Below, one piece after another: positions 1 through 54,146 of a DNA stretch of 64,000 bases. Position numbers and translations under genes: made by a program. Origin of the DNA: Mesodorylaimus sp. YZB2_4 (Eukaryota; Nematoda; Enoplea; Dorylaimida; Dorylaimidae). The notes under the pieces were generated by a model. The model made no database searches. It had not been told where the DNA came from and saw nothing but the letters and a program-made list of their open reading frames with translations. Location: positions 744,001 to 808,000 of the forward strand of contig JASANH010001213.1 of assembly GCA_030248295.1 (NCBI GenBank), read 5' to 3'. Every line of letters begins with the position of its first letter. The first letter of the stretch is position 1.

Positions 1-343
1 TAACTTTGTTTACCATCCTTCTTTTCCCATCGATTTGGGCGATCGCATCGGCGAACAACGTCCAACAACCCTCGACGCTGCAGCAGCCGTATAGTTGCAG
101 GATTACACCAAGGAATGCACCCAAGAAGCGGGTGCCGAATTGGGAAATAATGCCTGCAATGCGTTTAAGAACTGCTGCAAGAAATCGTGCCCTCGAGACA
201 AATCGATTGACCTCAGCTGCGAATCAACTGGGACAGTTCTGCCAGGCACGCAGCGTTGCACATGTCCAGCAGCTGGTAGTTCTTCGCTGATTGCGTGCAT
301 AGGACTTGTCTTGGCTATGATTGTTCTGGTACCTCTGCTTTAG
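1..343 (+). CDS. Small eight-cysteine secreted/GPI-type protein, 5' partial
   Basis: The start codon lies before the window. The visible part begins with a hydrophobic signal-peptide core (about positions 3-53, ending A-I-A-S-A). The cysteine module follows from position 101: C-x12-C-x2-F-x2-CC-x3-C-x9-C-x12-C-x-C. A hydrophobic tail then runs to the stop at 341-343, as in GPI-anchor precursors. Signal peptide and module lie in different reading frames. A 41-nt segment at 60-100 starts with GT, ends TTGCAG and would join the frames exactly (phase 0), so it may be a very short intron; otherwise the gene carries a frameshift. The other members of the family in this window (25.9, 29.0, 29.9, 32.7, 35.6, 53.6 kb) are uninterrupted, which favours decay. 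Function is unknown; a role as an extracellular surface protein is inferred. Confidence 0.6.
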
Positions 344-1317
344 TTGGTTCTTGAATCAATTTTTAAAAATCGTAAGTTGGCCCGACTGTTTGCAGCATCA
401 AGTAGCAACTGTACGATGCCTGTGCTTGCTAGATGATAGTTCTTCCATTTGCACGACTCATGTTTCGAATTGCAGTTATCATTGTTTTGTGCACTTTTTT
501 GGGGGGGGGGGGGGGGGGGGGGGGGGGGTGGGTCGCAATTTGAGAACCACGTGACAGATTTCTATAATTTTTGGTACTGGCATGTCCTACCTGTCAACCC
601 ATGATCCCACGGAACGATTTTGCATAACAATGGCCAGTTGTCAAGATATGCAGACAAACCCATTTCGTCCTATGTTATAAGATACGTTGGGTCTACGGAC
701 CCAAGTGTTCGACCAACTGCTCGTCGTCTCTCGTTTTACAATACACAAAAAGAGACATGTGCATTCGAGAGGGACAAGTGCTTGATGAGGCTTGCCAACA
801 ACAAAACTTTTGCTGCTTCAATCGCTTCCTACGACTAATCTTACAATAGGCGTCATCTCAAAATACCTATCCAATTTAGAATTTAGAGCTTCAATTAGGT
901 GTTTAATTTGAAAGCGCTGCCAAAAGTGATCTTAAACTTTGACTCAAGAGGCTTCTGGTGAAGCGAGCAAGTTGCGGATAAATCTGCACAATATCCATAT
1001 CTGTGCCGTCCTACATAGATGTGGTGCTCATATTATTACTTGCCGCCAATGCGATTTTGAATTTTAATGTGACACCAACCGCATACAGTATTTTCAGTGG
1101 CCGTGATTTGGGCCACTTCGATAATATTTCTGATGTTGCCATTGCCACATTTTGAAGAATTGCGCGGCGCCCGAGGAAATAGAATCACGAAAATGAATAC
1201 TCATTTGAAAAGTTCTAGCCGTCAACCAAGGACTTTTCAAACATGGTGTGCGGGCGAGAATTGGTTGTGCGATTTCATTAAGTGCAAGACTGCCGATAAC
1301 GCAGGAGTAAGGATTAG
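344..1317. other. Gene-free stretch with a 28-nt poly-G run
   Basis: No supportable gene was seen. The only clear feature is an uninterrupted run of 28 G at 501-528. Open frames near 620-838 and 1097-1564 have no recognisable signal, domain or homologue in the window. Confidence 0.5.
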
Positions 1318-2579
1318 TTATCCCGCCATGATTGCGTTGCAGATCAACGCAAAGAGAACGAGACCGATGCCGAAGGGCACCCAAGGAAAGGATGAGCTCG
1401 TGCTTTTCGTCATTGACGTTGGTGCGGCAGGCTGTGGCCCCAATTTTGGCGGAATCGGAGACTTAGGCGCACGGATGTTGGATTCACTTTGGCTGTTGTC
1501 GGGCAGGATCGTTGTTCCAGGCAACTTCGACCAATCCGCCGCTTTTGCTTGTTCCTCGAGTTAGCGATTGTGAAGGCGTCAATGCGGCTTCAGTAGTTCC
1601 TGCCGCTGAGGATGGAATCTGGCTGCTGAGCTTGCTCCTTCGGGTCGACTCGCAATCAGTCAATCAATCAATCTTTACTTTTGATCAAACACGTAAGAGT
1701 GCACTCGAGGATCAAAAGACATAGTCATAAAAATAAAACATGAGAAATTTACAAGCACATGTTGATATTACGGTAAAACCAACCACACGTTCCCCAGGCG
1801 ACATCCAGTGGCACATTATTCCAAAGCAAAATACCAGAATATGTAAAACATTGACGATAAGACTCAAAGTTTGGCTTAGGCAAAATTAGATGATGATCGA
1901 TATCACAGCGCCTATCACTTGCACGTACATTACCATCTTTGCGAATAAAAAATCGATTACTGAAATCGTGATACCCGTGATAAAATTTATAAAACTGTAC
2001 CACTTTCAGACGACGTCTACGCTCAGATAAAGACATCCAACCGCACGTTTTGAGCTCCTTTGCCACATTTTTTGTCAATCCATTAAAGGCCGTCCACGTT
2101 CATACTGGCCACGACGCAACGACTGTCTGACACCTCGCCGTTTGGTTCCCCCTTCTTCCTAGGGAACTTTCGGTTTGGAAATGTTGTTTCCAATGTTGTA
2201 TGGTCGGACACCCATCGCCACTTTGCCGAATCTTTTCAATTGCTCTGCTCGAGTTTTCTCTCTCGAATCAGATCGATCCAAAAGGTCAGAGACTTTGAAT
2301 AAAAATGGTCGGTGAGCAGTTTTTCAAGTTTCGCATGCTTCTCTGAATCGAACTTTGGCAGATTCCATTCGAGTTGGTAGGTACTGAAATATTTGAAGTA
2401 TTTCGCAGCCCTTGCACGCGCCATGCGCTTATTGATATATTGATAGGGTCAGACAGGATGTAAATACAGCTTTGATTCGTCACTTCATTAACATTGTGAT
2501 CGAGGCAATGCAGCGTGATCACAAGAGGGACCAAGAGGGCAATGAGCACGAACAGAGAGGGAGCATGAGCAACGACCAT
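1318..2579 (-). pseudogene. C-type lectin-like membrane protein pseudogene, split by a LINE
   Basis: Read on the minus strand from ATG at 2579, this matches the two intact lectins at 5.8 and 7.4 kb. It has the M-V-V start and signal peptide, then T-L-H-C and the first cysteines. A frameshift leads to the frame holding W-N-L-P-K-F-D and F-W-I-D-L (about 2400-2240). Another shift leads to K-W-R-W, a retained E-P-N motif and W-I-D-K-K-C (about 2205-2070), with one in-frame TAA. The domain is then interrupted by a LINE fragment. Just after it, C-E-S (the end of the lectin domain) resumes at about 1655, followed by a stalk and a membrane segment ending in a stop at 1318. At least two frameshifts, an internal stop and an insertion make this non-functional. 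It lies in opposite orientation to the intact copies. Confidence 0.75.
1653..2057 (-). mobile_element. 3' fragment of a non-LTR (LINE) retrotransposon
   Basis: The minus strand from about 2057 to the stop at 1749 encodes the last part of a LINE reverse transcriptase. It carries the C-terminal layout C-G-W-x-S-L-x-E-R-R-R-R-L, then L/F-Y-K-x-x-H-G, a mid-region ending L-x-x-P, and W-N-x-V-P (the W-N-x-L-P landmark) close to the stop. A short 3' UTR follows and ends in a (CAAT)n run at 1653-1675, which reads (ATTG)n on the coding strand; simple-repeat tails are typical of CR1/L2-like LINEs. It is a 5'-truncated insertion of about 400 bp inside a lectin pseudogene. The clade is not certain. Confidence 0.65.
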
Positions 2580-2609
2580 CCTTCACTAATGTTTGGAGTA
2601 GTGTTCTAA

Positions 2610-2780
2610 TGACCTGGGTTTTTCCCTGTCTGACCTGACACTGACCTTGTCCGACCCCTCAAAAAATTTTCTGACCTGACTTGACCTGACCTCGATCTTG
2701 ACCGAACCAAAAAACTTTCTGACCTGACCGTTGACCTGCGAGGAATTGTAAATTTTCTGGCTCTGACTTTGACAGTGATC
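2610..2780. repeat. Degenerate TGACC-rich repeat block
   Basis: About 170 bp made of imperfect TGACCTGACC and TTGACC units alternating with AAAAAATTTTCTGACC-type spacers. A related block in the opposite orientation lies at 4470-4615, and both share a flank resembling GGTCATT(A/T)(T)AACACTA. A relative rich in GGGTCGGGT is at 15396-15816, with short pieces near 30930 and 57630. Open frames across it are low-complexity artefacts. Confidence 0.55.
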
Positions 2781-3308
2781 GGACAAAAAATTTTGCAAAC
2801 ACCACCAACCGGCACCAGCAACAAAGCTTCTCTGTGTTTGCAAGTTTACCAAGAAATTTCACTACAGCCGACAATTTTCTGGCACTTCGTGAAATTTTAC
2901 GGGCAGTCCAAGAAACTGAACTTTTATCAAGCTCAAAAATATATGCAAAGCTGTTTTCACAGCTTTGGGAAAATTAAAGAAGCTGACACCCATTTAAAAT
3001 CAAAGATAAATCTTATTCGTTGTACGCCAATTCTTGCTCCAAATGCCTGCTGCATGATGGACTTTTTTCACCGTAATCCGAGAAAAGGCGCCTTACTAGG
3101 CTGGAAGTGGCTGGTACAGCCAGGATACCTCCCTTTAATGACGCCAAGTTTATATATGAACGAATGGGAAGAGATAGGGATGGCTATACCGCGTATGGAT
3201 GGCATTCGCAAGCACACATCACGCTGGCACACAGTAGTCTATGCAGCTGGGCTGATAGGGGACTGGACGAGTGAGACAACTGCAATAGCACAAGACTCAC
3301 AATCAGCA
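2781..3308. other. Gene-free stretch with an unassigned long open frame
   Basis: An open frame of about 200 codons runs from near 2769 to 3377 on the plus strand. It begins inside the TGACC-rich repeat and ends inside the inverted-repeat element at 3309. It has no signal peptide, domain or paralogue that I can see, so it is not called as a gene. Confidence 0.4.
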
Positions 3309-4390
3309 GGGCCAGTTTCACAGTGCGATTCTAATTTTTCACAATACAGTTCAGGGCACTGTGAGACAGCAACTTAGGACAACGCTGAGACACCAATTTA
3401 GGACGCTTCCCAATAGCTGTTCTAGGGGTGCCTTATCCGTAGATTTGGGCACGTCCTAAGACAGGTTTCATCTTGTTTCATAATTGAAAAGGTTGACTCA
3501 AGACATTTCAGCAGACCACAAAATTTAACGCGGGAAATAAATACTTTGCAGTACGTGTAAGCTCGGCACCATGTACTGGTCGAAGTTTGCTAAGCGATTG
3601 TATCTGAATAATTATACTATGTCACGAGGATGCCCTGGCTAAGGTAGGCTGGTCCGCATTATATGAGCTCAGCAAACGTGCCAAATTGGGTTTATTTTGC
3701 AAGCTTTAACATGGGTTTTATTATTTGGGAATCCTCGTTTGATGCACAAAATCTGACCGTCATATCAGCAGACTGCGTGAACCACATCATCTGTTTTTCC
3801 AAGTCATAATTTTGAGTCCACAGAGTTTTGTGTTTCTACGACTGTTGTACGGGATTCTTTCCCATGGGATCATGCTTGCTAGTGACTCTATCGCGCGTGC
3901 AAGTTTTATAATTAATACTGTGTCTCCCCCTCCCCTATCAAGTGCATGTATTTGCTTGGGTGAAGAATGATGATAATGGGATTCTGTCTGTATCTGTATC
4001 TGTATATTTCTGCAGCCAAAGACAACCGTCGCCCCCCCCCCCCCAACCTGTCGTCCCTTTTAAACCATTCAGGCCAAAAAGAAACGACAGAATTTTAGTT
4101 CAGCTGAAACAGAACCATTTTTACGGCTCGAGAGAGCTAAGGCAAAATGCCACAATCTCAAGACGCCCAAAAAGTTGCTCTAGAAAGATCAGCTCAAAAT
4201 TGCCATAGATCAAGGAAAATTGCCCTGCGCCTGACAGCGCTGCTGGGAAATAAAGACAACAGGGAGTGTCTTAAACTTAATGTATGACTGCCTGGTGTCC
4301 TTGCCTGGGATACCAAGCTGATTGTGAAATCACTAAGGACTGTGACAGAATTTAGGACATGCCTTGGGATTCAGAACTGTAAAACTGCCC
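3309..4390. mobile_element. Non-autonomous DNA element with GGGCAGTTTYAC ends (long copy)
   Basis: The left end starts GGGCCAGTTTCACAGT at 3309 and the right end finishes ACTGTAAAACTGCCC near 4390, so the ends are inverted repeats. Positions 3365-3470 and 4285-4390 match the short copy at 42183-42470 closely, sharing TTTAGGAC words and the stretch around GACAACGCTGAGACACC. The middle (about 3480-4285) is absent from the short copy. No transposase is visible. A run of ten C lies near 4034 and one of 13 C abuts the right end (4388-4400). Confidence 0.6.
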
Positions 4391-4469
4391 CCCCCCCCCC
4401 AGATCCCTACTAAGGAAAGCAGGAGCTTGAAATGTTTTCACCAACATTTCAGTAAATTTACTTTCTTTC

Positions 4470-4615
4470 GCTGTCAGAATACTCTGACCGGGTGCCGGAA
4501 ATTCTGACCCGACCCGACCGACCCCCCAAAAATTTTCCGACCTTGACCCTGACTTTGACCAAGGGTCAGTCAATCGGGGTTTGACAGAATTCTGACCTTG
4601 ACCTTGAGGTCATTT
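4470..4615. repeat. Degenerate GACCCGACC/TTGACC repeat block
   Basis: Imperfect tandem GACCCGACC and TTGACC units, the inverted relative of the block at 2610-2780. It has low coding potential. Confidence 0.5.
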
Positions 4616-5832: not shown

Positions 5833-6924
5833 ATGGTCGTTTCATCGCGAGGCGCTCTGAAGATTTTGTTTGCCTTAGTCTCGGTCTGTGCAGTCATGAC
5901 ACTGGATTGTCCCGATGGCAATATGAGCGTGCATCGTTTCACCAGCGGCAACTGCATCGCTTTTTTCGCTGATGTCGGCTCTCTGACAAGAGACGAAGCA
6001 GTGGCGATGTGCAAAAACTTCGAGACCGAATCGCTTGCTTGGCACCTCCCGAAATTGGATTGGAAGAAGAATGCTGATGCTGCTATACTGCTTTCGAAAG
6101 AATTCCCCCGCCTGAACCCAATATTTTGGATCGGCCTTGTTTCAGACGAAAACGACGATCAAAACGGTTCAACGAACGATTCTAAAGGATGGAGGTGGAG
6201 TAGGGATGGCTCGACTCTGCACTCCACATTTCCAAATATCTCTGCCCCATGGACCGATGATAAACGAAGTGGTCAGAAACCGGGAAGGCGATGCGTCGTT
6301 GCCAGACCCCACGGCCGAGCTCGAACGTATTTAAAATGGAGTGCCAGAGATTGCGACGAAAAGAAAAGTTTCTTGGTGTGTGAGTCGCTTGACGTGTCAA
6401 ATGCTACAAGCGTGGTACTGGCGACCGTGAATGGCGGGCGACGATCATGGGTTAAGAATGTGAGGCGCAAAAAATACAGCAATCTCGAGAATAAAGTGTC
6501 GAAAACCAACAACAGCGTCTGGGATTCTGCGCCAACAGGAGCGCCACCTCAAACAACCTCTAAAAGTCAGCCCGAACCAAATGCCGAACATGGCGTTCGG
6601 AATCCATCTCCAAATAATCCGGACACTGGATTTCAGTGGATGCTGATTGGATTTGGATTGTTCCTGCTTGCCGCGATTTGCATCGGGATCGTGGCTGGCG
6701 TTGTCATCGTTCGCCGACGTCGAAAACGGCAGTCTCTCCGTCCGCCGAAAAAAATGCCAATTTCGGAAACTCCATCAGGGGAAAGTGGAACGAGGGGGTC
6801 AGGTTGTAATTACGAAACTGCTGCCAACATGCCCCTGTCAGAAACGGCAAAGGAGACTAATCGCAAGAAACCAGAGAAGCGCAAGAAGAAACGCGAGAGG
6901 AAAAACCAAACCGGGTCCCAATGA
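5833..6924 (+). CDS. C-type lectin-like type I membrane protein, lectin 1 (363 aa)
   Basis: The uninterrupted frame begins at ATG 5833, supported by the same M-V-V start in the pseudogene at 2579. Residues 1-24 form a signal peptide. Residues 26-183 form a long-form C-type lectin domain with six cysteines (C26, C41, C60, C154, C174, C183), F-W-I-G-L at 98-102 and W-R-W near 120. The usual sugar-specificity tripeptide (E-P-N or Q-P-D) is not present: the position reads S-G-Q-K-P-G, and W-N-D is replaced by W-S-A, so calcium-dependent sugar binding is doubtful. A Ser/Thr/Pro stalk with N-glycosylation sites precedes one membrane helix (about 267-293) and a very basic cytoplasmic tail with a N-Y-E-T-x3-N-M-P-L motif. 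No intron is seen. A role in cell-surface recognition is inferred from the fold. Confidence 0.85.
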   Translation: MVVSSRGALKILFALVSVCAVMTLDCPDGNMSVHRFTSGNCIAFFADVGSLTRDEAVAMCKNFETESLAWHLPKLDWKKNADAAILLSKEFPRLNPIFWIGLVSDENDDQNGSTNDSKGWRWSRDGSTLHSTFPNISAPWTDDKRSGQKPGRRCVVARPHGRARTYLKWSARDCDEKKSFLVCESLDVSNATSVVLATVNGGRRSWVKNVRRKKYSNLENKVSKTNNSVWDSAPTGAPPQTTSKSQPEPNAEHGVRNPSPNNPDTGFQWMLIGFGLFLLAAICIGIVAGVVIVRRRRKRQSLRPPKKMPISETPSGESGTRGSGCNYETAANMPLSETAKETNRKKPEKRKKKRERKNQTGSQ

Positions 6925-7019
6925 AAGATGACTTGGCATGGTATGATCTACGGATATCTTCACTGGTGCATGAATCATGAAATTGTGAGTGAATGCTCTT
7001 AAGCAGTCCACAGAAATCG

Positions 7020-7025
7020 AATAAA
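7020..7025 (+). terminator. Putative polyadenylation signal AATAAA
   Basis: AATAAA lies about 95 nt after the stop codon of the first intact lectin, a normal 3' UTR distance in a compact animal genome. It is a positional inference only. Confidence 0.4.
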
Positions 7026-7442
7026 ATTCCGCTGGAAAGAAAAAATTCTCCATATTTGTTGTGGATTCAAACTTCGTCAAATTTTTTCTCCTTTTATCAG
7101 CTTTTAGCGTAAGAGAGTTTTTGTTGTTTTGATGTTTGATCGATGATCGTCACCTAACTTCTTGAAAATATGACTGCACCTTTTCACAAATTTGATCAAT
7201 TTACCACATTTTTTTATCGCTTGTTTATCTTCCTTCTTTTTTTTGTGACCTTGATAAACCAAGCAATATAAGCAATATACACCTCATAACTGTGCACACT
7301 TTTCACTTTGCAGCACAAAAATCGCAAGGTCGCATGACTTCCTTGTTGACACACTACCACTTGTTGTTGTGAGTTTACACGATCAGCAAGTCCTCATAGT
7401 GATCGTCCCGCCTGCTGTATACCGTCTTTTGTGCTTGCTGAA

Positions 7443-8513
7443 ATGGCTGCCAGTTCGCGTTGGCTCGTGGCCTTGCTCGTCGTTTTCTCGACCCCCGCAG
7501 TCATGACTTTTGACTGTCCGACTGACAAGTTGGACGTTCGCCGATTCGCGGATGGCAGCTGTTTGGGAATTTTGTCGATTGAGCGTGGTCGAACACGGGA
7601 CGAAGCAGAGGCGACGTGTAAACGTTTCACCAGTGAGTTCCACGCTTGGCGCTTGCTGAAACTGGATGAAAAGAAAAACAAGGCGGCTGCAGCGCTGATA
7701 AAGAACGTATCTAAATATGGAGCGCCAGGGTTTTGGATCGACTTGGTTCGAGATCAGAAGGAAGATAACAGCTCGTGGGGCGATTCGACCAAATGGCGAT
7801 GGCAAACGGATGGCTCGACTCTACAATCCACCTTCCCCAATAGTCCTATTCCATGGAGATCCGGTGAACCAAATGGCGAGGCAGAGAACGATCGATGCGT
7901 CCTTGCCAAATATGATCCTTTTTGGAGTCAACTCAGATGGAGTGACAAAAAATGCAGTGAAGAAAGACGCTTTCTGGTGTGCGAATCAGTCGATACTTCA
8001 GGCAATAGGACCAGCAACGAGAAGCCCGAGAAGTCGGAAACGCGAACAACAGCCATGGCAACCCGCTCGTCACATGTGGCTAAGAGTATGAATCCAAAGA
8101 CCTCATCGCCCAGTTTGTCTGAAAACAAACTCGGCGCTAACGACGTAGGCCAGACTTCGAGCACCGTGGATTCAGAAATTCAATGGATACTCACCGGGGT
8201 TGCTCTAGCTTTGATCGCCGCCATTTGCATCGGCACTGCAATTGGTATAGTCATTGCTCGACGACGCCAGAAGCGACGAAAAAATGCTCGCCGATCGTCA
8301 CTAAGAAAATCAGATTCAAACACTCCTTCGGGGAAGAGGGAATTGTCTCATCATTACGAAACCGTTGTCCCGAACCTACCTTTGGTTCAACAGAAGTGTG
8401 CTGCCGAAAAGGAGGAAATGAATGGTCGCCACAAAAAACGAAGGAAGTTAAAAAAGAAACGACGAAAGACGAAGAAGATGCGTCGCACTGAAAAAAATTC
8501 CTTGATCATGTGA
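7443..8513 (+). CDS. C-type lectin, type I membrane protein, lectin 2 (356 aa)
   Basis: The ATG at 7443 starts a good signal peptide (residues 1-22); an in-frame GTG at 7431 is ignored. The lectin domain spans residues 25-180 with cysteines C25, C40, C59, C152, C171, C180, F-W-I-D-L at 97-101 and W-R-W at 118-120. Unlike lectin 1, it keeps E-P-N (142-144), the mannose-type specificity motif, and W-S-D (166-168) in place of W-N-D, so calcium-dependent sugar binding is plausible. A stalk, a membrane helix (about 247-272) and an 84-residue tail rich in Lys/Arg follow. The tail has H-Y-E-T-x3-N-L-P-L at 304-314, matching the tail motif of the neighbour. It is a tandem, same-strand duplicate of the 5833 gene, 0.5 kb away, with no introns. 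Confidence 0.88.
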   Translation: MAASSRWLVALLVVFSTPAVMTFDCPTDKLDVRRFADGSCLGILSIERGRTRDEAEATCKRFTSEFHAWRLLKLDEKKNKAAAALIKNVSKYGAPGFWIDLVRDQKEDNSSWGDSTKWRWQTDGSTLQSTFPNSPIPWRSGEPNGEAENDRCVLAKYDPFWSQLRWSDKKCSEERRFLVCESVDTSGNRTSNEKPEKSETRTTAMATRSSHVAKSMNPKTSSPSLSENKLGANDVGQTSSTVDSEIQWILTGVALALIAAICIGTAIGIVIARRRQKRRKNARRSSLRKSDSNTPSGKRELSHHYETVVPNLPLVQQKCAAEKEEMNGRHKKRRKLKKKRRKTKKMRRTEKNSLIM

Positions 8514-15390: not shown

Positions 15391-15395
15391 TGACG

Positions 15396-23905: not shown

Positions 23906-23910
23906 TTACG

Positions 23911-25860: not shown

Positions 25861-26187
25861 CTATAATTTGAAGTATCTGAGCGCAATAAATCCTAAGGAA
25901 ACCAATCCAACTCCAGCCATCATCGAAGAAGCACCGTTTGTATTGCACGTACAATTAGCATCGGTAATGTGCAGAATTCTATTGACCATTTTGCATTGCA
26001 CATCTCGGGGCCCATCTTCTCCACACGCATCGAAACAGCAACTGTAGAAATCGGAGCACTTATCGCGGCTAGCGGAGGAACCAGCGATTTGAGCTCGGCA
26101 ATGTTGGGATGGATTCTCTGGTTGATCATCCGCCGTGCAAAATGTCATGAGAGCGGCAAAACTAACGACCACAAGAAATCGAAGCAT
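25861..26187 (-). CDS. Eight-cysteine secreted/GPI-type protein (108 aa)
   Basis: ATG at 26187, signal peptide residues 1-19. One module: C-x13-C-x2-F-x2-CC-x3-C-x9-C-x13-C-x-C. A short linker and a hydrophobic C-terminal segment with a short end (residues about 89-108) have the form of a GPI-attachment signal. The gene is intronless. It is convergent with the 7TM gene at 24660-25643, whose stop lies 218 nt away. Function is not known; no enzyme motif is visible. A surface-tethered disulfide-rich protein is inferred. Confidence 0.75.
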   Translation of the reverse strand: MLRFLVVVSFAALMTFCTADDQPENPSQHCRAQIAGSSASRDKCSDFYSCCFDACGEDGPRDVQCKMVNRILHITDANCTCNTNGASSMMAGVGLVSLGFIALRYFKL

Positions 26188-26827: not shown

Positions 26828-28110
26828 TACGAGGGGAGTTCAAAAAGTTCGTAGCCTGACCACATGTTAATTAAAACTGTACAAGGTAATGCTTATTTAT
26901 TTTCGACATAACATCCCCTGAGACCACTGCGCTTGTTTAAACTTTGGCGCACCGCGTGCATACCCGCAAAAAAATATTACTCACACCCCTCAAAAAACGC
27001 TTCAGTCGCTGGTTTCACTTCCTCATCCCTCGAACATCTCTTGCCACGTGAACTTTTTTTGAGTTTTCCGAATAGGTAATAATCGCTGGGTGCCAGGTCT
27101 GGACTGTATGGTGCATGATCAGTTTGTTTGAATCCCCATTCATCGATGGCAGCCTGAGCAACGCGTGCTTTGTGAACTGGCTCGTCGTCAATCAGGAGCA
27201 GCACCTTCTTTTTCAACATGCCGCGCCGTTTCGCTTTGATCTCTTCACGCAATCGGCGGATAACATCAGCAAAATATTGCCCAGTGATTGTGGTCTTGAC
27301 TGGCATATAATCAATCACTATCATTCCGTTTCAATTTTAAAAAAGTTGTTGCCATGACCTCGCCCAATGACTGCTGAACGCGAAATTTTTTGGCGGATGT
27401 GCACCCTTTGGCAGCCACTGTATCGATTTGTGTTTTGACTCAGATCTAAGTGGTGAATCCAGGCTTCATCATCCATGACCGTTTTTTCATAAAAATCATC
27501 TTGATCAGCCGCGATCCTTGTCAAAACCTTTCTTGACGTTTGAACTCTTCTCACGTTTGCCAGGTCTTTTGGCACACATCGCGTGGACCTTGGATAAATT
27601 CAATTTCTCTGTAAAATAGTTTCAACGCTACCCACTGAAATGCCCATTTCCTCCGCTATCTAGACAACGTCTGCTCGAAGGTCTTCTTTCCCGATCTTTG
27701 CCACAACATCGTATTTGTTGGCCGGTGTCGCCTCGGTTGGTCGTCCAGATCTTGGGTCATCTTCAATCGATTCTCCCCCCATGTTTGAGCAAAGCAGACC
27801 ACTTTTTCATTGACAGCAATTTAGATGCATTATTGCCGTACACTAAGACAATCCGATCGCTAATTTCTGCCGGCTTTAAGCCTTCTTTTGTTAAAAACTT
27901 GATAACAGACCGATGCGCAAAATTTGTCAAATTTGTAATTTCTCTGACCCACTTCCAAATAGATGACCATATCTCAAGAACGCATGGACGAATCAGCGTG
28001 ATTTTTTGTAGGGATTCTAGTGGGATGTGCGGCAGTGTAAAGTACAAATTTCACTGCTGCAGCTCATGCGGAAGGTACTCAGGCTACGAACTTTTTAAAC
28101 TACATCCGTA
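26828..28110 (-). mobile_element. Mariner transposon, degenerate
   Basis: TA-flanked ends TACGAGGGGAGTTCAAAAAG (26828) and its partner, inverted TACGGATGTAGTTTAAAAAG (28110), both continue GTTCGTAGCCTGA. The length, 1283 bp, is that of an intact mariner. On the minus strand the transposase appears in pieces: the helix-turn-helix start (R-S-V-I-K-F-L-T-K-E-G-L-K-P-A-E-I), a D-D-E-A-W-I-H-H segment with the first catalytic Asp, L-L-I-D-D-E-P-V-H-K-A with the second, and Y-S-P-D-L-A-P-S-D-Y. Frameshifts separate these blocks, so it is inactive. Confidence 0.85.
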
Positions 28111-29045: not shown

Positions 29046-29372
29046 CTAGAGATTGGTAAATTGAAATAGGAAAATGGCGAAAATAGTCAATCCGAATCCA
29101 GCCATCTTAGCACCACTACCACTGCAAATACACTCTACATCCAGATGAACAGATTTGTCATTGGCCACCTCTAAATCGCAGTCATTTTTTGCTACCCCCT
29201 TTTGTCCGCATCTGTCTTCGCAGCAATCTTTGAATTCGTTGCATTGATCCGCTGGTCGTTTGGTCGCCGTCATTTTACTTCTACATTCATCAGCCAAATG
29301 ACCCCGCTCATCATCGCCAGCCACGGCTAAAAAAGCACAGGTGATAATACCACAAAGGAAGATGGCCCTCAT
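29046..29372 (-). CDS. Eight-cysteine secreted/GPI-type protein (108 aa)
   Basis: ATG at 29372, signal peptide about residues 1-18 ending A-V-A-G. One module: C-x13-C-x2-F-x2-CC-x3-C-x9-C-x15-C-x-C. Then a Gly/Ser/Ala-rich ω-site-like stretch and a hydrophobic tail. The charged, Lys/Asp-rich loops differ strongly from the paralogues while cysteine spacing is nearly fixed, suggesting a conserved scaffold with variable surface. Same strand as the copy at 29945, 0.57 kb away; both are intronless. Confidence 0.75.
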   Translation of the reverse strand: MRAIFLCGIITCAFLAVAGDDERGHLADECRSKMTATKRPADQCNEFKDCCEDRCGQKGVAKNDCDLEVANDKSVHLDVECICSGSGAKMAGFGLTIFAIFLFQFTNL

Positions 29373-29944: not shown

Positions 29945-30274
29945 TCAGGCAAAACAGTGAAGAATCGCAATGGCTAGGACGACCAAGCCGAATCCAGCGG
30001 CCATTGTCGAGGCACCGCTGCAGTCACAGCGCACAGTGTCAGCTAAGGCAGTCTTGGCACTGTTATACTGGCACGTGTCATTTCGGGCTCCGTTCGGACA
30101 ATGGCGCTTGTCGTTGCAGCATGCTATGAATTCATGGCATTGATGCTCCAGAGGCGACTTCAACTCTTTTTTGCAGTCGGACGTTGCCTGCGCGCTGGTA
30201 GCAGCGAGGTCATCGCCGAGTACCGAGGTCAGCAAACTGATGAAAACGAGAGCGAGGAAAAAGTAAATTTTCAT
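29945..30274 (-). CDS. Eight-cysteine secreted/GPI-type protein (109 aa)
   Basis: ATG at 30274, signal peptide residues 1-20. Module: C-x11-C-x2-F-x2-CC-x5-C-x8-C-x14-C-x-C; the x5 gap after CC is a two-residue insertion relative to other members. The C-terminal 20 residues are hydrophobic after a small-residue S-G-A-S stretch, as in GPI-anchor signals. Neighbours are family members at 29046 and 32666 on the same strand. Confidence 0.75.
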   Translation of the reverse strand: MKIYFFLALVFISLLTSVLGDDLAATSAQATSDCKKELKSPLEHQCHEFIACCNDKRHCPNGARNDTCQYNSAKTALADTVRCDCSGASTMAAGFGLVVLAIAILHCFA

Positions 30275-32665: not shown

Positions 32666-33184
32666 TCAAGCAAGTTTCACGATCACAGAACAAAATATCA
32701 CGAGTGCACTCCAAGCCACCAACGATGCAGCCCCGCAAACACATCGGACACGCGGGGCGTGAATGAAGCCATTTCTGACTGAACAGTAGTTCCTCCGCGC
32801 ATCGCCTTTGCACGACGTTTCGCAGCACGCGGAAAATGCAGTGCATTGGTCCTTGTTGAATGAAAGAGTCTTGTTGGCTTCTTGAACGCATTTATTGTCG
32901 AGCTTGTCCAAAGGATGGCATTTGCATGAAGCATTGTAATGGTAGGTGGCAGCAGCGTCCTTGACCAATTCACAGTCACCTCTCAAATATCGAACGCCAC
33001 ATTCTTTCTTGCAACATTGAAGAAAATGTTGACACTCGCTAGTTTTGGGGGTGGGATAACGCAGAATAAGGTCCTTATCGCGGCATTCATTACTTGCTTG
33101 GAAACTGATGACTGGATCAAACAGAGGAGCCGCACTTTGGGCGGAAGTTATGGTCAAAACAGCGATGGCAATTTGAAACCACAT
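32666..33184 (-). CDS. Two-module eight-cysteine secreted protein (172 aa)
   Basis: The first ATG of the frame is at 33184 and gives a signal peptide (about residues 1-19); an upstream TTG is not used. Two tandem modules follow. Module 1 is C-x16-C-x2-F-x2-CC-x3-C-x8-C-x15-C-x-C. Module 2 is C-x14-C-x2-F-x2-CC-x3-C-x8-C-x13-C-x-C. A hydrophobic tail closes the protein. Two-module relatives are at 35630 and 53646. The gene is intronless. Tandem modules imply internal duplication before the gene copies spread. Function unknown. Confidence 0.78.
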   Translation of the reverse strand: MWFQIAIAVLTITSAQSAAPLFDPVISFQASNECRDKDLILRYPTPKTSECQHFLQCCKKECGVRYLRGDCELVKDAAATYHYNASCKCHPLDKLDNKCVQEANKTLSFNKDQCTAFSACCETSCKGDARRNYCSVRNGFIHAPRVRCVCGAASLVAWSALVIFCSVIVKLA

Positions 33185-34431: not shown

Positions 34432-35629
34432 GATGGCCACTGTCGCCAATGCATCCGCGTGTTGGATTTTTACAAATTCTTTAAAGCAAATGGATAATTA
34501 ATCCAAGGAGAAGTTAATTATGTAGTTGGAGGAGGTCTGCAGTGAATGTAGTTTCAGATATATAACTTTAGGATGCTCGATTTTTACGCTATATGTGGAC
34601 ATGGTCAGACAATGAAGCTTCCTCGGAAACTTTTATAGCGGAACGCGAACTGTGATATGGGCATGACATTAAAATGTCATTACCTCTTCCCGCGTCCCAT
34701 ATGAATCCCCGCAGTCTTGGCGATCGCCTAGCTCAAATGACGTGCGTTCAGATTCATAAAGGTGGAATCTTCTTGCTGAGATAATGAAAAAAGGTTTGGC
34801 TGATTTCCTTTTTTAACCCCCTGCCTAAGCCCGGGGACCCCAGCACCAAAAAAAAAAAAAGCCCCAAAAAACACATGCTAACCTGCAATAACTATGTTTT
34901 AGTCTGGGCGTTACGGCATCATCCTTTAAAAAGCATAATAACACGCCAGCTTTTGCTCTTGGCTTTTCTTGTCCCTCGCTAGTTTTTAAGACTAGGGGGA
35001 ACGGGGGGGGGGGGGGGTGGGCACAGAACCAGAATGAAAGTAGCATCAGCATTACACAGACGGCAACGTTTAAAGGAGCTGCGAAGCTAGGATGGCGGTG
35101 TGCGTGTTGGGAAGTCCAATCCTTTCCTTTGCCACCGATCCTTGTTTGGGTGTGCCCCAACAGCATGACATATATGCGCTCTTATGGCTACCATACTGTA
35201 TATCCTCGCTCACCTCCAGTTAATATATATCGCTGCTCTGTGAAATTGGAACCTAAATCCTAAAAACCGTATTGAGCGAATGGGTTTTGCTTTTCTATTG
35301 TAATTTGACCCTTAAAATCATTTTTCTTTGCTGCCGCTACAAGCCTAGAGCCGTAGTCCGTAAGAATCGACCTTTACCTAAACCTTTTTTTTCCGGAACC
35401 TTGATTTTAGCGATAGAAAATATAGATCAGTTTTTCGCGCTGATTTTAAATCTGTGATTAGAAAAATGTGTTGTCGAGCACATGTGTCGTTTCGACATTG
35501 GCTTTCACACTTTCAAATACTGATAATTATTAAGTTACAGCATTATACAAACCAGTTCTATTTTGAGAAAATTAGACGTTCAAACAATCGCAAAATATGC
35601 CTCATTAATTAAGCAGAGAAACCTTGCAG
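34432..35629. other. Gene-free stretch
   Basis: Holds an A run near 34848-34860 and a 15-nt G run at 35003-35017. From about 35480 the sequence is a duplicate of about 53490-53640 (3' flank of the cysteine-rich gene). No gene supported. Confidence 0.45.
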
Positions 35630-36130
35630 CTACAATGCTCTCAAAGCCATCAATGCAGCAAGCACCAGCCCACTCCGAGCAATCACCGATGTAGCTCTAC
35701 TGACGCCGCACACGCATTTGGTACGAGGCATATTGATTGACTTATCTTTGATCGAGCACTCCACGCTGGGATTGAGGCAGTTGTCTTTGCAGCACCCAAT
35801 AAAATTTGAACATTGATCTTTTCCAGATAACTCGGTTCTGGCTGCTTGGACGGCACATTTTTCTTCGACGTAAGTCAGTGGGCTGCAAATGCAAGTGACC
35901 GAGTGGCTGTTAATACCAGATATTTGGCAATCAGCCTCTGCCAAGTGCCTAGCACCACATAAATTCTTGCAGCAACTAATAAATTGCTGACAGTTGTCTG
36001 AATTTTTTGGTGAAAGACTAATCAAGTCTTGTCGACATTCTTCGGTTGCTTGCGGACTGAGTAAATCGAGGGCTGCTGAAGTGCTCATAAAACAAATTGA
36101 GGCAAGTAGAACAAAAATGCGTTCTTTCAT
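35630..36130 (-). CDS. Two-module eight-cysteine secreted/GPI-type protein (166 aa), copy 1
   Basis: ATG at 36130, signal peptide residues 1-20. Module 1: C-x14-C-x2-F-x2-CC-x3-C-x9-C-x11-C-x-C. Module 2: C-x14-C-x2-F-x2-CC-x3-C-x6-C-x13-C-x-C. A hydrophobic C-terminus follows S-R-A-T-S. It is almost identical to the gene at 53646; differences cluster in the signal peptide and a handful of loop positions. The duplication includes about 0.15 kb of 3' flank and about 0.45 kb of 5' flank, so promoter sequence is shared. Intronless; function unknown. Confidence 0.82.
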   Translation of the reverse strand: MKERIFVLLASICFMSTSAALDLLSPQATEECRQDLISLSPKNSDNCQQFISCCKNLCGARHLAEADCQISGINSHSVTCICSPLTYVEEKCAVQAARTELSGKDQCSNFIGCCKDNCLNPSVECSIKDKSINMPRTKCVCGVSRATSVIARSGLVLAALMALRAL

Positions 36131-36611
36131 TTTGTATATGCGACGACAAAATAACGAGGCAAAGTGCAGGCTGATTGCTCTTTAAACGAGACAAGACGCC
36201 AAAGTGAAGAACCCAAAACTACATACTTGGCACTATGGGCTTAGGTGTGCGAAGTTGACAGCGTACGTGTTTATTTCATTGACTGAACATTCCAAACGAA
36301 TTACCATGCAAGGAAGATAACTTGTTTCAAAGACCTTGAAATTGTTCAAGTCCCTATTCCTCCAGGGAAGGAGCCGCGGTTGTAATGAGCAAGTCTAATA
36401 AAGAAACCAGTCATTAGGTCATGGATCCTGTGCTATGTACTATTGTCTTTGTTTTCTGTTAAATTTTTTCAGATGGTCACCTCCGTCACAAACAATTTCT
36501 AGTCATTCTTTATGTCGAAATATGGTTGTCATAAGCTTATTATTTGAACTCATCGCAAATGAGACGCAGAAAACCTCAGAAGCTCGAAAAAAAAATTGTG
36601 AAATTCTTGTG

Positions 36612-37082
36612 CTAACTGTATGAGATAGCGAATAGAATGGTTGAGAGGACGAATGGCACAGTCATTTGGAAAAAGAACCGATGCTTATATTTTTGCGAGC
36701 AGTAAGTCGCCATTACTCGCTCAGTAGCAAGAGGGATATTCATGCCTAAAGCCCACACTTGGGAAAAGATAAGAAACGCTAGCTCTAAGCAAAAATTCCA
36801 AACGGTCATGATTTCGCCAGTGTATAGGAAATATCGTTTCAATTTTAACGTTGTTGCCACTAAATAGCTCATTCCGATCAGGATGTTGGACAAAGAATTG
36901 AATGAGAGCAGAACAAAACATTTGGTATGCAATTTAATAGCAGATATAATAATAGCAGCAGTGATCAGGTTTACCACAACCGCTAGGACACTTGATGGAA
37001 TGATGAGAATATTTTGAATAAGAGTCAGTCGTAGTAAATACCTTGATTCCTCGAGAGCGTCAAAGGAAGAGTTAATGTCCAT
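36612..37082 (-). pseudogene. Truncated 7TM receptor, copy of the gene at 59043
   Basis: ATG at 37082 and the first about 150 residues (TM1 to TM4) match the intact receptor at 60011-59043, including the M-D-I-N-S start and T-E-R-V-x-A-T-Y-C-S. In TM4 the copy shifts frame, apparently by a one-base insertion, and stops at 36612. No TM5-TM7 follows. About 90 bp of 5' flank, including CTGACTCGATTTGAATC, is also shared with the intact copy. The protein lacks any signalling face, so a pseudogene is the likely reading. Confidence 0.78.
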
Positions 37083-42150: not shown

Positions 42151-42182
42151 TTTGTAATGCGTTGCATCATCCTAGTGTGCTT

Positions 42183-42470: not shown

Positions 42471-42489
42471 CTGTTGCTGATGTGGTAAA

Positions 42490-48602: not shown

Positions 48603-50217
48603 AGGCGGCCCCGGACGTCTGCGGATTTCCTAAACTCCTATCCTGAAAAGTGCACGCAAAATATATTGTAAAAACATTAAAAAAACGCACTGGCATGAAT
48701 AATGAAAGTGGTATAACTATAAAGAATAAAAATACGAGGATTAAAATAATTGGTCAAGCTATTGATTAGGATATCACGATCCTCTGTTCAAGCTAGAATA
48801 AAGATATAAATTAAAATATTATGAAAATAAGATGAGCAAAACAACAAAACACCCACGATACCAACCCGAATCCATAATGCTCACACACTGGCGCTTCCAC
48901 TCCGCGCCATCTACGACTCCACGCACTATACCTCCCTAGCCGGTCAATCGCAGGGTATGTGACGGCGGCGTCGCACTTCTCCACTCTCTGAAAATTCCAA
49001 ACGGTCTCGATGCAGTCGAGGGCTGTCGAAGCTGCTGGACTTTGCCTCCGGTCTACGTTGTAATGGCGGCGAACTTCGGGCTGGTCAATGTCCTTGCGCT
49101 TCGTGGCTGCGTGGCAGGCGCCCCCAAGCGGCAATGGTCACAACATCAGAGTAAAATCTTGAATGTGAGCCTGTTAGATTATACCTTCGTTCGGTGAAAT
49201 GGCCGCCCAGACAGCTGCTCACATTTGGATCGGCCATCCGAATTGATACTCAAGTATCTAGACACCCTATGACTTTAGTAATATTTTAAGAAATTCCCAT
49301 TGACGAAGTGACAGAGAAGAATGTTTTGCAAGAAAAACCAGCTTCGTCTGTTATGCTCCGCGGAAAATAAGAAAGAATCACGAAATCTCGATCATGAAAG
49401 GCATATTCACGTTTTCACTACAGCCGGATTTGTACGTAAAAATGCCAAGGTTCCTTGAAGAAAATGGTTTCTTGCGACACAGCCTCTTTTTTATCAGGCG
49501 AGGATAGAAGTTAATTTAGAAATCGACTTTTGCACTGCGTTTGGAAACGAATGTCATCACGAGCTCACTCGTCATGGACATCATAAAGACAGCTTTCGCT
49601 CAATTCATGGCATGGGCCACCAGAATCCGGTGGGATTTTTTCGCCGTGTTTGACTCACACGTTACTGTAGTGGCCCAGAATTGATAATGTTCGCTGCCTT
49701 GTCTTGAGGTTGATTAGGTTCGGTGCCTTAAAAAGTTTTTACTTTCATTTTTGCTAGAAGCGAGATTATATTATTTTTATCCATGAACGTCTTCCCTTTT
49801 CTCCGCTTCCTCACCGAGACGCTTCGTTCTATCACCTCTGGCAACACTAGCAACTTTTCTTACATCGAAAGTACTTGTGAGGACGTTTGCAAAGGTGAGC
49901 ATACGGATAAAATGACATGACATACACTCATGTGAGGTTGTGCGTCCCGTAGCTTGTGATGCAAAAGGCTACTCAGGTACCCGGTTAAGAATTTAGTGCA
50001 ACAGATCATGATGAGCGAGTCGTTAATATGTTTAGGGTCGACATAAAATACATTTTAGCTCGACACGTGAACAATTACAGAGGCTTAATGAATAAGCATG
50101 CTTCTCACCGACACTCGCTAAGACATTTCGAATCCCCGGTATGTAGTTCAAATAGTATGTACTTTGACACCGATAATACTATAGTTATAAATTTCTTGAA
50201 GTGTCGTTCTCGAAATA
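48603..50217. other. Gene-free stretch
   Basis: The minus-strand open frame at 48811-49134 begins in the direct repeat and has no domain. A short plus-strand frame from ATG 49783 ends at a donor-like GTGAGC (49893) with two Cys; too weak to call an exon. Confidence 0.35.
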
Positions 50218-51000
50218 CGTCATCCGGGGCTATTTCGGACCAGCGGGGCAATTTCGGAAAAAAAATGCAAGTAGCCTTTGACAGTACCCCGACAGAGAGT
50301 GTCACCGCAGAGCTTGGTCGTTTTACATGCCATTCTGTAGCTAAAACTCTATTTTATCAAAACCGAGCGCTGTGCGCCGCCTAAAAGTCAGATACAGTAA
50401 GAAAACACAACCTATAACAACCTATAAAAATTTCAGGGAATTTTCTGGCTGCAAACTTTTTCTCGCGTTTGGGCTACAGATGAATGTGATAGATGAAATT
50501 GGGTTTTTGACAGTCTCTCCTCCTAAGTTGCTTGGCTTTCTTATCTTTCTGGCCTACCTTCTCCAGAGAGCCCTATGTCAATAATTTGAGAGGCGAAATT
50601 TTTATTTCCCAAGGGTCCCCCCTTTGAAATCAAAAATTTTCACTTTCATAATTAGGTGCTGTAGGTAAAAAAATTTGGCTTTTTTCTACAAAGTGCGAGT
50701 GCTGAACCTAACTATTTCACTTTTTTTCAGTATCCCGACATCGATTCACGAGTGCGCTTCGTCTAGCATAGGTCATCCGAAATAGCCCCATCCTTGGGTA
50801 ATTTCGGATGCTAGCAGTTTTTGACAAAAAACTTCTTCCAGGTGCACTCAAAAAGATTTTTCACGCAGTATTTCGATTCTTCAACATCTTAGCATTCCAC
50901 TGATGCATTGAATTACAGGTTTCATGGATTTTTTGGTTAGATATTCGATAATGATTGTAGCGCAGTAGGGAGAAAACGTCCGAAATAGCCCCGGATGACG
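50218..51000. mobile_element. Element with perfect 23-bp terminal inverted repeats
   Basis: 50218-50240 (CGTCATCCGGGGCTATTTCG and three more bases) is the exact reverse complement of 50978-51000. A second, inner pair of ATTTCGGA/TCCGAAAT words lies at about 50250 and 50770-50810. No transposase; miniature non-autonomous element likely. Confidence 0.7.
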
Positions 51001-51394
51001 GTGCTTATTTACATTTCAACAAAACATTCATTCTTGAAATCTCATGCAGCTTGAAATTGCGAAAGACCATTTTATAAGGACTTGAAGACCTACAGTATGT
51101 ATCAGCGTCTCCATGATGCAGCACTCACCCAATGGTAATACCTCCCCTGTAAGTGCGCACCCTGCGTGAATGGCACCACCTTAACCCGCCTAGGCTACGA
51201 CCCTGGTCCTGGTATGAGTGTTGCAGCCACACAAAGCACGCAGCGCTTCGAAAATGATATTTTTATGACAAAATTCGCATCCACGAAAGCTTTTATCATT
51301 TATTAAAAACACAACTTGCGATAAACTGCGTTAAAATGGCCTTAAATGTCCGGGGCTACATAGCCTATGTATCAACGGCACCACGACGCAGCAT

Positions 51395-52378
51395 TCACCG
51401 AGTGGTTGTGGTGACTGAGACACTATTTACCCCTACTCGAAACGCTTTCTTGGTCGCGTCACGAAACTGAGTACTCATTGTGAGCAAAGAAAAGAAATCG
51501 ATAGTTGAACTGAGCACGACAACATGGGCGCCCATACGATTGGCCACAGTAGCAATTGATTCACTCGTCAAAGCGTCTACGAGACACAAACTGAATCTGA
51601 CGGCAATCGTGCAGCTTTGCGTGACCACTATGGCGCTAACAGCCTTGATAAACTTCATATCCGATTCGAACTTGGCCATCTCACGTCGTACACTTTCATG
51701 GTTGGACGATTGACTTCGAGCAGCTTGAAGCTTTTTCTTTTGTTTTCGAACACCATGAGCCAGCAAGCCGTGCAACCCGCAAACCCCAAAGGACACAGTG
51801 ATTTGGACTACAGTCAACACCGACCAACTCAACAGCGACACGGTATCTTCTACTCCGCAAATGCGCACAGTTCTGAACCTGCCCTTCCAAGAACTTGCAA
51901 CATGGACACCCAACTGGGACAAAGCGAACACAAGGGACGCGAGGACAAGCGGGACAGTGACTTGACGATAGGACCAGTGCTTGTACCTGATTGGACAAAA
52001 CATGGCCAGGACCCGTTCCGTGACCAGAGCTATATTCATGCCGAGAGACCACATTTGGGCAAATATGAGGAAAGCTACTTCCAAACAACAACGCCACATG
52101 CTCATCAGTTCACCCCTCCCTTGGAAATGGCGGGATATTCTGAGCACACTCGTCGCCAGGTAACTCCCACCGACAAGGGAGTCCGCAAAGGCGTTGATTG
52201 AGAGGAGGACAAAACATTTCGTGCGCAGAGATTTCGATGACAGAATGATGAAAACAGTGATCAGGTTGAACACAAATGAAAATGCGCTGGCTGGGATCAT
52301 AAGAAAATTAGGGACCAAGGTGATCTTGATTAAATACGCGGACTGTTGCAAATCGTCCGTGGTTTCGTTAGCGGCCAT
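51395..52378 (-). CDS. Chemoreceptor-like 7TM receptor A2 (327 aa)
   Basis: ATG at 52378, N-E-T glycosylation site at residue 4. Layout as receptor A1: E-R in V-T-E-R-V-L-A-M-F-C-P-I-R-Y, loop Cys in R-I-C-G-V-E-D, and S-T-I-D-F-F-S-L-L-T-M-S-T-Q-F-R at the end of TM7. Long stretches of the DNA are nearly identical to 39.8-40.7 kb, but TM5 to loop 3 and the last residues differ clearly. Intronless. Lies 11 kb from A1, with receptor B between them. Orphan receptor; signalling through G proteins is expected from the class, not shown. Confidence 0.86.
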   Translation of the reverse strand: MAANETTDDLQQSAYLIKITLVPNFLMIPASAFSFVFNLITVFIILSSKSLRTKCFVLLSINAFADSLVGGSYLATSVLRISRHFQGRGELMSMWRCCLEVAFLIFAQMWSLGMNIALVTERVLAMFCPIRYKHWSYRQVTVPLVLASLVFALSQLGVHVASSWKGRFRTVRICGVEDTVSLLSWSVLTVVQITVSFGVCGLHGLLAHGVRKQKKKLQAARSQSSNHESVRREMAKFESDMKFIKAVSAIVVTQSCTIAVRFSLCLVDALTSESIATVANRMGAHVVVLSSTIDFFSLLTMSTQFRDATKKAFRVGVNSVSVTTTTR

Positions 52379-53489
52379 GACCTGACTGAAAAATCAAATT
52401 ATTGCTCTCTTCGCAATGACCTTCTGGAAAATAAGTTGGTAACGCGACTTCTGCTCCAGCATGTCTTGCGAGCGAACTGATTACTGGCTTGGTACCACTG
52501 GTTTTAAATAGTAAGACTAGCATAATGGGTTAGAAAAGTTATCATTAGTGAGGTTGTTTGGATTTTTCGCGCCCACTGAAAAATCGAATCGGTTGCATAT
52601 CGAAGATTATAATTAGCACCTGGCACTGATTATCGTTTTTCACGGCTCTACATTGATAGTGCCGTTGATGATATCTGAATGAAACCTCAGCAGTACTTAA
52701 TCAACTCTTGTCTTCACCCCCGCATGTCCCTTACTAGTGCAGTAGACTCGTCCGAGCCTGAGCAAAAGTCTGTCAGCGATAGTTGCTAATTATAGAAAGC
52801 AGTACAAGCAGCATTTCCGATAGTCTTTGAAGGCCAAGTCTTGCAAAGCACTTTGCATGTCTGAATTATTCACCACATTTTTCCAAAGTGGGTGAAGATT
52901 TTTTTGGCAGCAGTCCTGACTCAAGTTATGTACGTATGACTTCATGTTTTGGTTTTTTTTCTGGTCAGCTGTTTTCTAGGAGATTCTCGACTCCGATGCC
53001 ATCGCCAGTTAGTGCCTATTTTTTTGTCATGCGGGGTGCGTTGGAAGTGATCAAAATGTGCTGAAAAGTGAAATATGATCAAAATGTACTGATGGCGAGA
53101 TACTGTATTTGTAATTGTATATACAAAGCTCCTTATTAGTTATTAGCGAACTTTCGTTCAGGCTAACAATAAAGGCAATTTTGCTACACCAATACTTCAC
53201 GACGGGCGGAGGTGGAGAAACAGTTGCTTCTTTTAAAGCTTTACTATGTTCGACTACAGCATAATCGACGGCGTAACGAATCTGGCATTGATTCTCGGAT
53301 CCACACTGATTACGCCGCTCATTATGATCTAAAGATAAATAACAAAAACCCAAACTAAGCAGGTATTTCTCAACCTTTGCCCGTCGTAGTTATCGCAAGA
53401 TTGTCTGAACTGGCTTTGAACCGAATCATGCAGCGAGATCTTTGACAACTGCCCAGATACCAGGAGGGGAGGGGGAACTGAAACGATTT
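52379..53489. other. Gene-free stretch
   Basis: Holds a short duplicated word (TGATCAAAATGTGCTGA and TGATCAAAATGTACTGA near 53048 and 53075). No gene supported. Confidence 0.4.
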
Positions 53490-53645
53490 CACGGATATGC
53501 AAGTTTCGACACTGGCTTTCACACTTTGAAATACTGATAATTCTTAAGTTACAGTAGAATACAAACCACTTTTATTTCGCGAAAATTCAACGTTCAAACA
53601 ATCACAAAATATACCTCATTGATTAAGCACAGAGGAAATTTGCAG

Positions 53646-54146
53646 CTACAACGCTCTCAAAGCCATCAATGCAGCAAGCACCAGCCCACTCCAAACAATC
53701 ACCGATGTAGCTCCACTGACGCCGCATACGCATTTGGTACGAGGCATATTGATTGACTTATCTTTGATCGAGCACTCCACGCTGGGATTGAGGCAGTTGT
53801 CTTTGCAGCACCCAATAAAATTTGAACATTGATCTTTTCCAGATAACTCGTTTCTGGCCGCTTGGACGGCACATTTTTCTTCGACGTAAGTCAGTGGGCT
53901 GCAAATGCAAGTGACCGAGTGGCTGTTGATACCAGATGTTTGGCAATCAGCCTGTGCCAAGTGCCTAGCACCACATAAATTCTTGCAGCAACTAATAAAT
54001 TGCTGACAGTTGTCTAAATTTTTTGGTGAAAGACCAATCAAGTCTTGTCGACATTCTTCGGTTGCTTGCAGACTGAGTAAATCGAGGGCTGCTGAAGTGC
54101 TCATAATACAAATTAAGACGAGCAAAACAAATATCTGCTTTTTCAT
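53646..54146 (-). CDS. Two-module eight-cysteine secreted/GPI-type protein (166 aa), copy 2
   Basis: ATG at 54146, signal peptide residues 1-20, two modules with the same spacing as the gene at 35630 (C-x14-C-x2-F-x2-CC-x3-C-x9-C-x11-C-x-C and C-x14-C-x2-F-x2-CC-x3-C-x6-C-x13-C-x-C), and a hydrophobic C-terminus. Sequence is nearly identical to that gene except for about ten residues. Both flanks are duplicated as well (about 53490 to 54600), showing a recent segmental duplication. AATAAA on the minus strand near 53571 is a possible poly(A) signal. Confidence 0.82.
   Translation of the reverse strand: MKKQIFVLLVLICIMSTSAALDLLSLQATEECRQDLIGLSPKNLDNCQQFISCCKNLCGARHLAQADCQTSGINSHSVTCICSPLTYVEEKCAVQAARNELSGKDQCSNFIGCCKDNCLNPSVECSIKDKSINMPRTKCVCGVSGATSVIVWSGLVLAALMALRAL

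What the first reader, a model, noticed from the sequence alone, without database searches (positions are those of the whole stretch)
1..54146. An intronless family of eight-cysteine surface proteins with a strict signature
Seven genes (1-343, 25861, 29046, 29945, 32666, 35630, 53646) share signal peptide, one or two modules and a hydrophobic tail. The module is C-x(11-16)-C-x2-F-x2-CC-x(3 or 5)-C-x(6-9)-C-x(11-15)-C-x-C. Spacing and the F are kept while almost everything else varies, the pattern of a stable scaffold under diversifying pressure. I cannot place it in a named domain family. The spread through a cluster of 7TM receptors is striking.
Basis: partly seen in the sequence, partly recalled or inferred. 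Interest (0 to 1): 0.75.

Follow-up and report, generated by a model that had tools for sequence, protein, structure and literature searches.

The report
Nematode eight-cysteine tethered surface proteins
A roundworm genome carries a small family of secreted, probably membrane-tethered proteins in which eight cysteines and one phenylalanine stay fixed while nearly every other letter changes; the module matched no catalogued domain in the searches made, and what it does is not known.

Summary
Six of the seven window genes are single open frames with signal-like start, one or two modules and a hydrophobic tail. The seventh (window start) is not shown to be intronless: its signal peptide and module lie in different frames. 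Three more genes were found, two right of the window and one on another contig: 10 genes, 13 modules. All nine signature positions are kept in 13 of 13 (the cysteines were partly a search criterion, the F was not); median identity elsewhere is 11%. The genome is a nematode's (133 cuticle-collagen domains). No Pfam, NCBIfam or PDB match is convincing. Most likely: lineage-type GPI-anchored disulfide-locked binding modules, perhaps Ly6-like in role.

The parts
1..343 (+). Gene 1 (left-truncated by the window): one module at 116-265 and a hydrophobic tail; signal peptide in another frame, so the copy is frame-broken or has a very short intron
25861..26187 (-). One-module gene, 108 aa; module 25945-26100
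29046..29372 (-). One-module gene, 108 aa; module 29124-29285
29945..30274 (-). One-module gene, 109 aa; module 30020-30175, the only one with CC-x5-C
32666..33184 (-). Two-module gene, 172 aa from the ATG; modules 32918-33085 (N) and 32735-32890 (C)
35630..36130 (-). Two-module gene, 166 aa; modules 35885-36037 (N) and 35708-35857 (C)
53646..54146 (-). Two-module gene, 166 aa, protein 92% identical to 35630; modules 53901-54053 (N) and 53724-53873 (C)
51395..52378 (-). Neighbour, not part of the family: single-frame Srsx-type 7TM receptor; with 55401-56615 it flanks the 53646 gene
36612..37082 (-). Neighbour, not part of the family: truncated 7TM receptor copy next to the 35630 gene (no Pfam hit of its own), 88% identical over 528 bases to 59550-60077

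Best explanation
A nematode family, apparently lineage-restricted, of small secreted surface proteins. Each has a signal peptide, one or two copies of a 50-64 residue module held by eight cysteines (presumably four disulfides), and a short hydrophobic C-terminus that probably directs a GPI anchor. The stretch C2-x2-F-x2-CC-x3-C5 is probably one amphipathic helix that packs, through its cysteines and phenylalanine, against the rest of the module including the terminal C-x-C; the exposed loops are free to change. The family grew by local duplication, probably by one module duplication that predates the split of the two-module genes, and by at least one member placed on another contig. Most likely the modules are displayed on the outer face of a cell and bind another surface molecule or a ligand, as Ly6/uPAR proteins do. 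Shown: signature, architecture, copy number in the DNA examined, location, divergence. Inferred: disulfides, helix, GPI anchor, binding role.
For: 10 modules in the window against 0 in 200 shuffles. Nine invariant columns in 13 of 13 modules with median 11% identity elsewhere. Nine genes (all but gene 1) are single open frames with a signal-like start; 22-29 residues follow the last cysteine and hold a hydrophobic stretch close to the C-terminus. A profile built from the modules finds the ten genes at E 1.8e-12 or better in the DNA searched, next hit 0.17 (the profile contains these same sequences). N modules group with N and C with C (82/89; tree mostly unresolved, and 51 and 40 of 500 label shuffles do as well). 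Pro plus Gly: 3 of 106 residues between C2 and C5 against 49 of 481 in the rest (Fisher p 0.013; near-identical copies counted separately), and spacing 0, 3, 6, 7, 11 fits a helix.
Against: No structure model, no expression data, no GPI predictor. Some tails are not typical GPI signals: those of 25861 and the C16 gene end in basic residues near the C-terminus, that of 35630 has two arginines inside, that of L009 has a basic pair before the hydrophobic part; a short membrane-spanning anchor is possible. The binding role rests on analogy only. Family size outside the DNA examined is unknown, since BLAST barely detects members (C16 gene at E 0.0018). Lineage restriction is inferred from absence in Pfam; no other nematode genome could be searched.
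Confidence: 0.5

Rival explanations
1. The proteins are accessory factors of the chemoreceptors among which they lie: GPI-anchored partners made in the same sensory cells as Srsx receptors.
For: The six window genes from 25861 to 54146 lie between or beside receptor-like frames (five Srsx over the Pfam cut-off, one 7tm_1 hit below it, one truncated copy, one 7TM-like frame by eye). The L008 gene lies about 2.5 kb from another Srsx receptor and the L009 gene about 2 kb from a 7tm_1 receptor.
Against: The C16 member has no receptor-like open frame in the 17 kb read around it; the three frames scanned there give SH2, MAM and Ku domains. Receptors are very numerous (639 candidates). The receptor copy beside 35630 is closest to 59550-60077 (88%), not to the one beside 53646 (77%), so joint duplication is not shown.
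Confidence: 0.2
2. A divergent branch of an already known cysteine-rich domain family whose relationship only a fold comparison would reveal.
For: C-x3-C in 12 of 13 modules and C-x-C in 13 of 13 recall the cysteine-stabilised alpha-beta pattern; weak hits to an insulin A chain (E 0.0087), cyanovirin-N (E 0.015) and conotoxin profiles (E 0.023 and 0.0065).
Against: The Pfam hits are below curated cut-offs; the insulin hit weakened to 0.059 when three members were added and no single stretch of the cyanovirin hits passes. Nothing appears in Pfam for the ten window modules.
Confidence: 0.3
3. Variable surface antigens of a parasitic nematode, diversified by host immunity.
For: Surface-type architecture and extreme divergence outside the scaffold.
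Against: No excess of amino-acid change in the one measurable pair; organism and life style unknown; a survey of helminth genomes reports no classical antigenic variation in parasitic worms (PMC4413821, passages read).
Confidence: 0.07
4. Precursors of cleaved cysteine-rich peptide ligands rather than tethered proteins.
For: Small modules, short linker between two modules, insulin A-chain-like CC-x3-C-x8-C spacing in some.
Against: The tail is hydrophobic in the nine complete genes; C2 to CC is five residues in 13 of 13, too short for the insulin B-to-A connection (recalled rule). Processing sites were not sought.
Confidence: 0.08

Closest known systems
Ly6/uPAR proteins (UPAR_LY6, PF00021), including nematode ODR-2/HOT proteins (recalled)
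   Same: Small, signal peptide, cysteine-rich, one or more modules, GPI anchor likely, clustered duplicates; [quoted passage not shown]
   Different: No Pfam match; the module ends in C-x-C and has CC in the middle, not the C-terminal CC...CN of Ly6 (recalled).
Insulin superfamily
   Same: CC-x3-C-x8-C in some modules resembles the A chain; weak PDB hit to DILP2 A chain.
   Different: Only five residues between C2 and CC, two extra cysteines as C-x-C, hydrophobic tail; the hit weakens with more members.
Cysteine-stabilised alpha-beta peptides (defensin type; pattern recalled)
   Same: Helix-like C-x3-C and terminal C-x-C.
   Different: G-x-C at the sixth cysteine in 1 of 13 modules only (read); extra C2 and C3; no Pfam match.
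Nematode DB, ET, CC and DUF19 cysteine modules
   Same: Nematode, secreted, cysteine-rich; large nematode secreted families of unknown function are common (PMC3534327, passages read).
   Different: None matched in Pfam.

Membership tests
Any Pfam-A domain | Profile match over the curated cut-off | tested here: not met
   9 complete proteins (six, three) and 10 window modules: none over a cut-off; lowest sub-threshold E-values Conotoxin_I2 0.0065, DUF4576 0.008, Conotoxin 0.023
Ly6/uPAR | UPAR_LY6 or Ly-6-related profile match | tested here: not met
   not among the hits
Ly6/uPAR | Three-finger fold | not testable with these tools
   structure prediction switched off
Ly6/uPAR | GPI anchor | tested here: inconclusive
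   tails fit by eye in part, with basic residues in several; no predictor, no experiment
Insulin superfamily | B-chain cysteine pair joined to CC-x3-C-x8-C through a connector of more than about ten residues (recalled) | tested here: not met
   connector is five residues in 13 of 13 modules
Insulin superfamily | Profile or sequence match | tested here: inconclusive
   no Pfam hit; PDB DILP2 A chain E 0.0087, then 0.059 with more members
Cysteine-stabilised alpha-beta | C-x3-C and C-x-C (recalled) | tested here: met
   12 of 13 and 13 of 13 modules
Cysteine-stabilised alpha-beta | gamma-core G-x-C (recalled) | tested here: not met
   1 of 13 modules

The most novel reading that the evidence does not exclude
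The module is a disulfide fold not yet described: one helix carrying four of the eight cysteines and the phenylalanine, closed by a C-x-C strand, in which nine positions alone suffice to keep the fold while most other positions are free; a natural, membrane-tethered binding scaffold of a nematode lineage.
Probability: 0.25. Interest if true: 0.6.

Novelty: new variant of a known kind. Interest (0 to 1): 0.35.

Why it matters
If the fold is new, it would be a compact, sequence-tolerant disulfide scaffold of interest for protein design and a marker family for this nematode lineage. If the fold is known, it shows how far a small disulfide domain can drift while profile searches lose sight of it. 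It also adds to the many nematode secreted families without known function.

Tried and rejected
Insulin relationship: suggested by one PDB hit; set aside on spacing and because adding members weakened it. Cyanovirin-N hits (best E 0.015, above insulin there): no single stretch passes. Phage and theraphotoxin hits (E 1.4 and 5.1): taken as chance. C151 hit (E 0.56): a reverse-transcriptase-like frame, by eye. C24 hit (E 0.45): a leucine-rich protein, by eye. C105 hit (E 0.10): stops inside, no module. L006 1389-1853 (E 0.17): signature incomplete, not counted. Bacterial/archaeal and viral contigs, queried with the 35630 protein only: 39 and 4 stretches matched a peptide pattern, none confirmed. 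Literature: the listings showed no description of this family; listings were capped and the library holds open-licence papers only, so this does not prove it unpublished. Species identification: the RF01960 search of the own genome was sent six times and not answered; the SL1 22-mer was not found, which does not settle the clade.
Full report
WHAT IS THERE. Ten modules lie in the window at the coordinates given. The alignment has nine invariant columns: eight cysteines and one phenylalanine. Six genes are complete single open frames: 25861-26187, 29046-29372 and 29945-30274 with one module; 32666-33184, 35630-36130 and 53646-54146 with two. Each begins with a hydrophobic signal-like stretch and ends 22-27 residues after its last cysteine in a hydrophobic tail. 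The tails resemble GPI signals, though several carry basic residues inside or near the end, and no predictor was run.

CORRECTION ON GENE 1. The gene at 1-343 is cut by the window edge. Upstream DNA (L007) shows an ATG 16 bases before base 1 and a signal-like stretch, but in a different frame from the module. Stretches of 35, 41 or 53 bases beginning GT and ending AG could act as an intron, with a poor donor; a frameshift or assembly error is equally possible. 'Intronless' is therefore not shown for this copy.

MORE MEMBERS. The window is C21:744001-808000 of a 145-Mb assembly. In the DNA fetched around it (contiguous from C21:724101 to the contig end at 1008586; the 724 kb further left were not read) two further genes appeared, both to the right: C21:809647-810009 on the minus strand (L008) and C21:825129-825467 on the plus strand (L009). 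The 181.7 kb beyond L009 (L010-L028) and the 20 kb left of the window (L035, L006) gave no further gene by pattern or profile. A BLAST search of the whole genome found a member at C16:781324-781656 (E 0.0018) with the complete signature. The count is 10 genes and 13 modules, a lower bound: six family proteins were used as whole-genome BLAST queries besides the C16 one, and identity is near the limit of such searches. Four other weak hits were read and rejected. The window modules and the L008 and L009 genes were picked up with a cysteine pattern, so only the F, and the whole signature of the C16 gene, are independent evidence of conservation. Spacing widens to C1-C2 11-21 and C5-C6 6-13.

WHAT KIND OF GENOME. 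133 matches to the nematode cuticle-collagen N-terminal domain make it a nematode (the 14 control genomes give none, but I do not know that they include animals). The species was not identified. The genome gives 639 first-look candidates for the Srsx chemoreceptor family, of which 148 were scored and 150 matches listed; about 120 of the 150 rows, counted by eye, are near full-length in one frame without stops (the list favours long open stretches). A table in PMC2576165 lists 35 srsx genes for C. elegans (passages read). Long single-frame receptor genes are therefore ordinary here.

SELECTION. Outside the nine invariant columns the median identity over 78 module pairs is 11%, so little more than the scaffold is kept. 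Only 35630 and 53646 are close enough to test. Their coding DNA is 95.2% identical, the module part 97.6%, the 426 aligned upstream bases 75.4% and the 141 downstream bases 87.2%. NG86 gives dN 0.038 and dS 0.094 for the whole gene, 0.019 and 0.047 for the module part, 0.079 and 0.176 for signal peptide plus tail; YN00 gives 0.049 and 0.053 for the whole gene, 0.091 and 0.125 for signal peptide plus tail, and failed for the module part. The numbers are small (14 amino-acid and 7 silent codon differences), and a ratio of 1 is not excluded. There is no sign of a ratio above 1. Silent change is also low in the module part, which suggests gene conversion. Relaxed constraint on loops explains the family as well as diversification does.

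ANATOMY OF THE MODULE. Between C2 and C5 the spacing (0, 3, 6, 7, 11) would put the cysteines and the phenylalanine on one side of a helix; proline plus glycine make 3 of 106 residues there and 49 of 481 elsewhere (p 0.013). The last two cysteines are C-x-C in 13 of 13. In the tree N modules stand together and C modules together (82/89), which fits one module duplication before the two-module genes split; but 8 of 10 inner branches are open, three modules have branch lengths at the ceiling, and 51 and 40 of 500 label shuffles do as well.

RELATIVES. No Pfam family passes for nine complete proteins and ten window modules; none appears in NCBIfam, a library made for prokaryotes, for eight proteins. 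The first PDB profile search gave one hit, an insulin A chain (E 0.0087), which fell to 0.059 when the profile grew to 13 modules; cyanovirin-N then came first (E 0.015) without any single stretch that passes. Insulin membership fails on the five-residue distance from C2 to CC. The C-x3-C and C-x-C pair recalls defensin-type peptides, but G-x-C is in 1 of 13 modules.

THE RECEPTOR CLUSTER. Five Srsx receptors over the Pfam cut-off lie in the window, with a truncated copy, one 7tm_1 hit below its cut-off and one 7TM-like frame by eye. Outside, the L008 and L009 genes also lie within about 2-3 kb of receptors, so the link is consistent along C21. Self-comparison shows that the two-module pair and receptor copies were duplicated in the same region, but the closest receptor match beside 35630 is not the one beside 53646, so joint duplication is not shown. 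Against a functional link, the C16 member has no receptor-like open frame of 90 residues or more in the 17 kb read, where three scanned frames gave SH2, MAM and Ku domains.

VERDICT. A real family of small, probably tethered surface proteins, not found in the domain libraries searched. The mechanism I hold most likely is display of disulfide-locked binding modules on the cell surface, comparable in role to Ly6 proteins. Shown: signature, architecture, numbers in the DNA examined, places, divergence. Inferred: disulfides, helix, anchor, binding.

Noticed in passing
whole genome; window 39757-60011: Very large Srsx-type chemoreceptor repertoire: 639 first-look candidates, 150 listed matches, about 120 of them near full-length in a single open frame without stops, counted by eye.
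   Followed up: partly
window 35489-36577 and 53503-54593: The coding part of the duplicated two-module gene is far more alike (95.2%) than its upstream flank (75.4%), and silent change is low too: possible gene conversion.
   Followed up: partly
window 5833-6924 and 7431-8513: Two neighbouring single-frame C-type lectin genes (Lectin_C over the cut-off) with, by eye, a signal peptide, a membrane-spanning stretch and a basic tail.
   Followed up: no
L019-L022 (C21 about 917-957 kb): Series of closely similar lectin-like open frames (read by eye, not scanned).
   Followed up: no
window 26977-27324: Fragment of a mariner-like transposase (DDE_3 and Transposase_1, both below cut-off).
   Followed up: no
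whole genome: The nematode spliced-leader SL1 22-mer (recalled) has no exact match in the assembly; missing repeats or a lineage with another leader.
   Followed up: no
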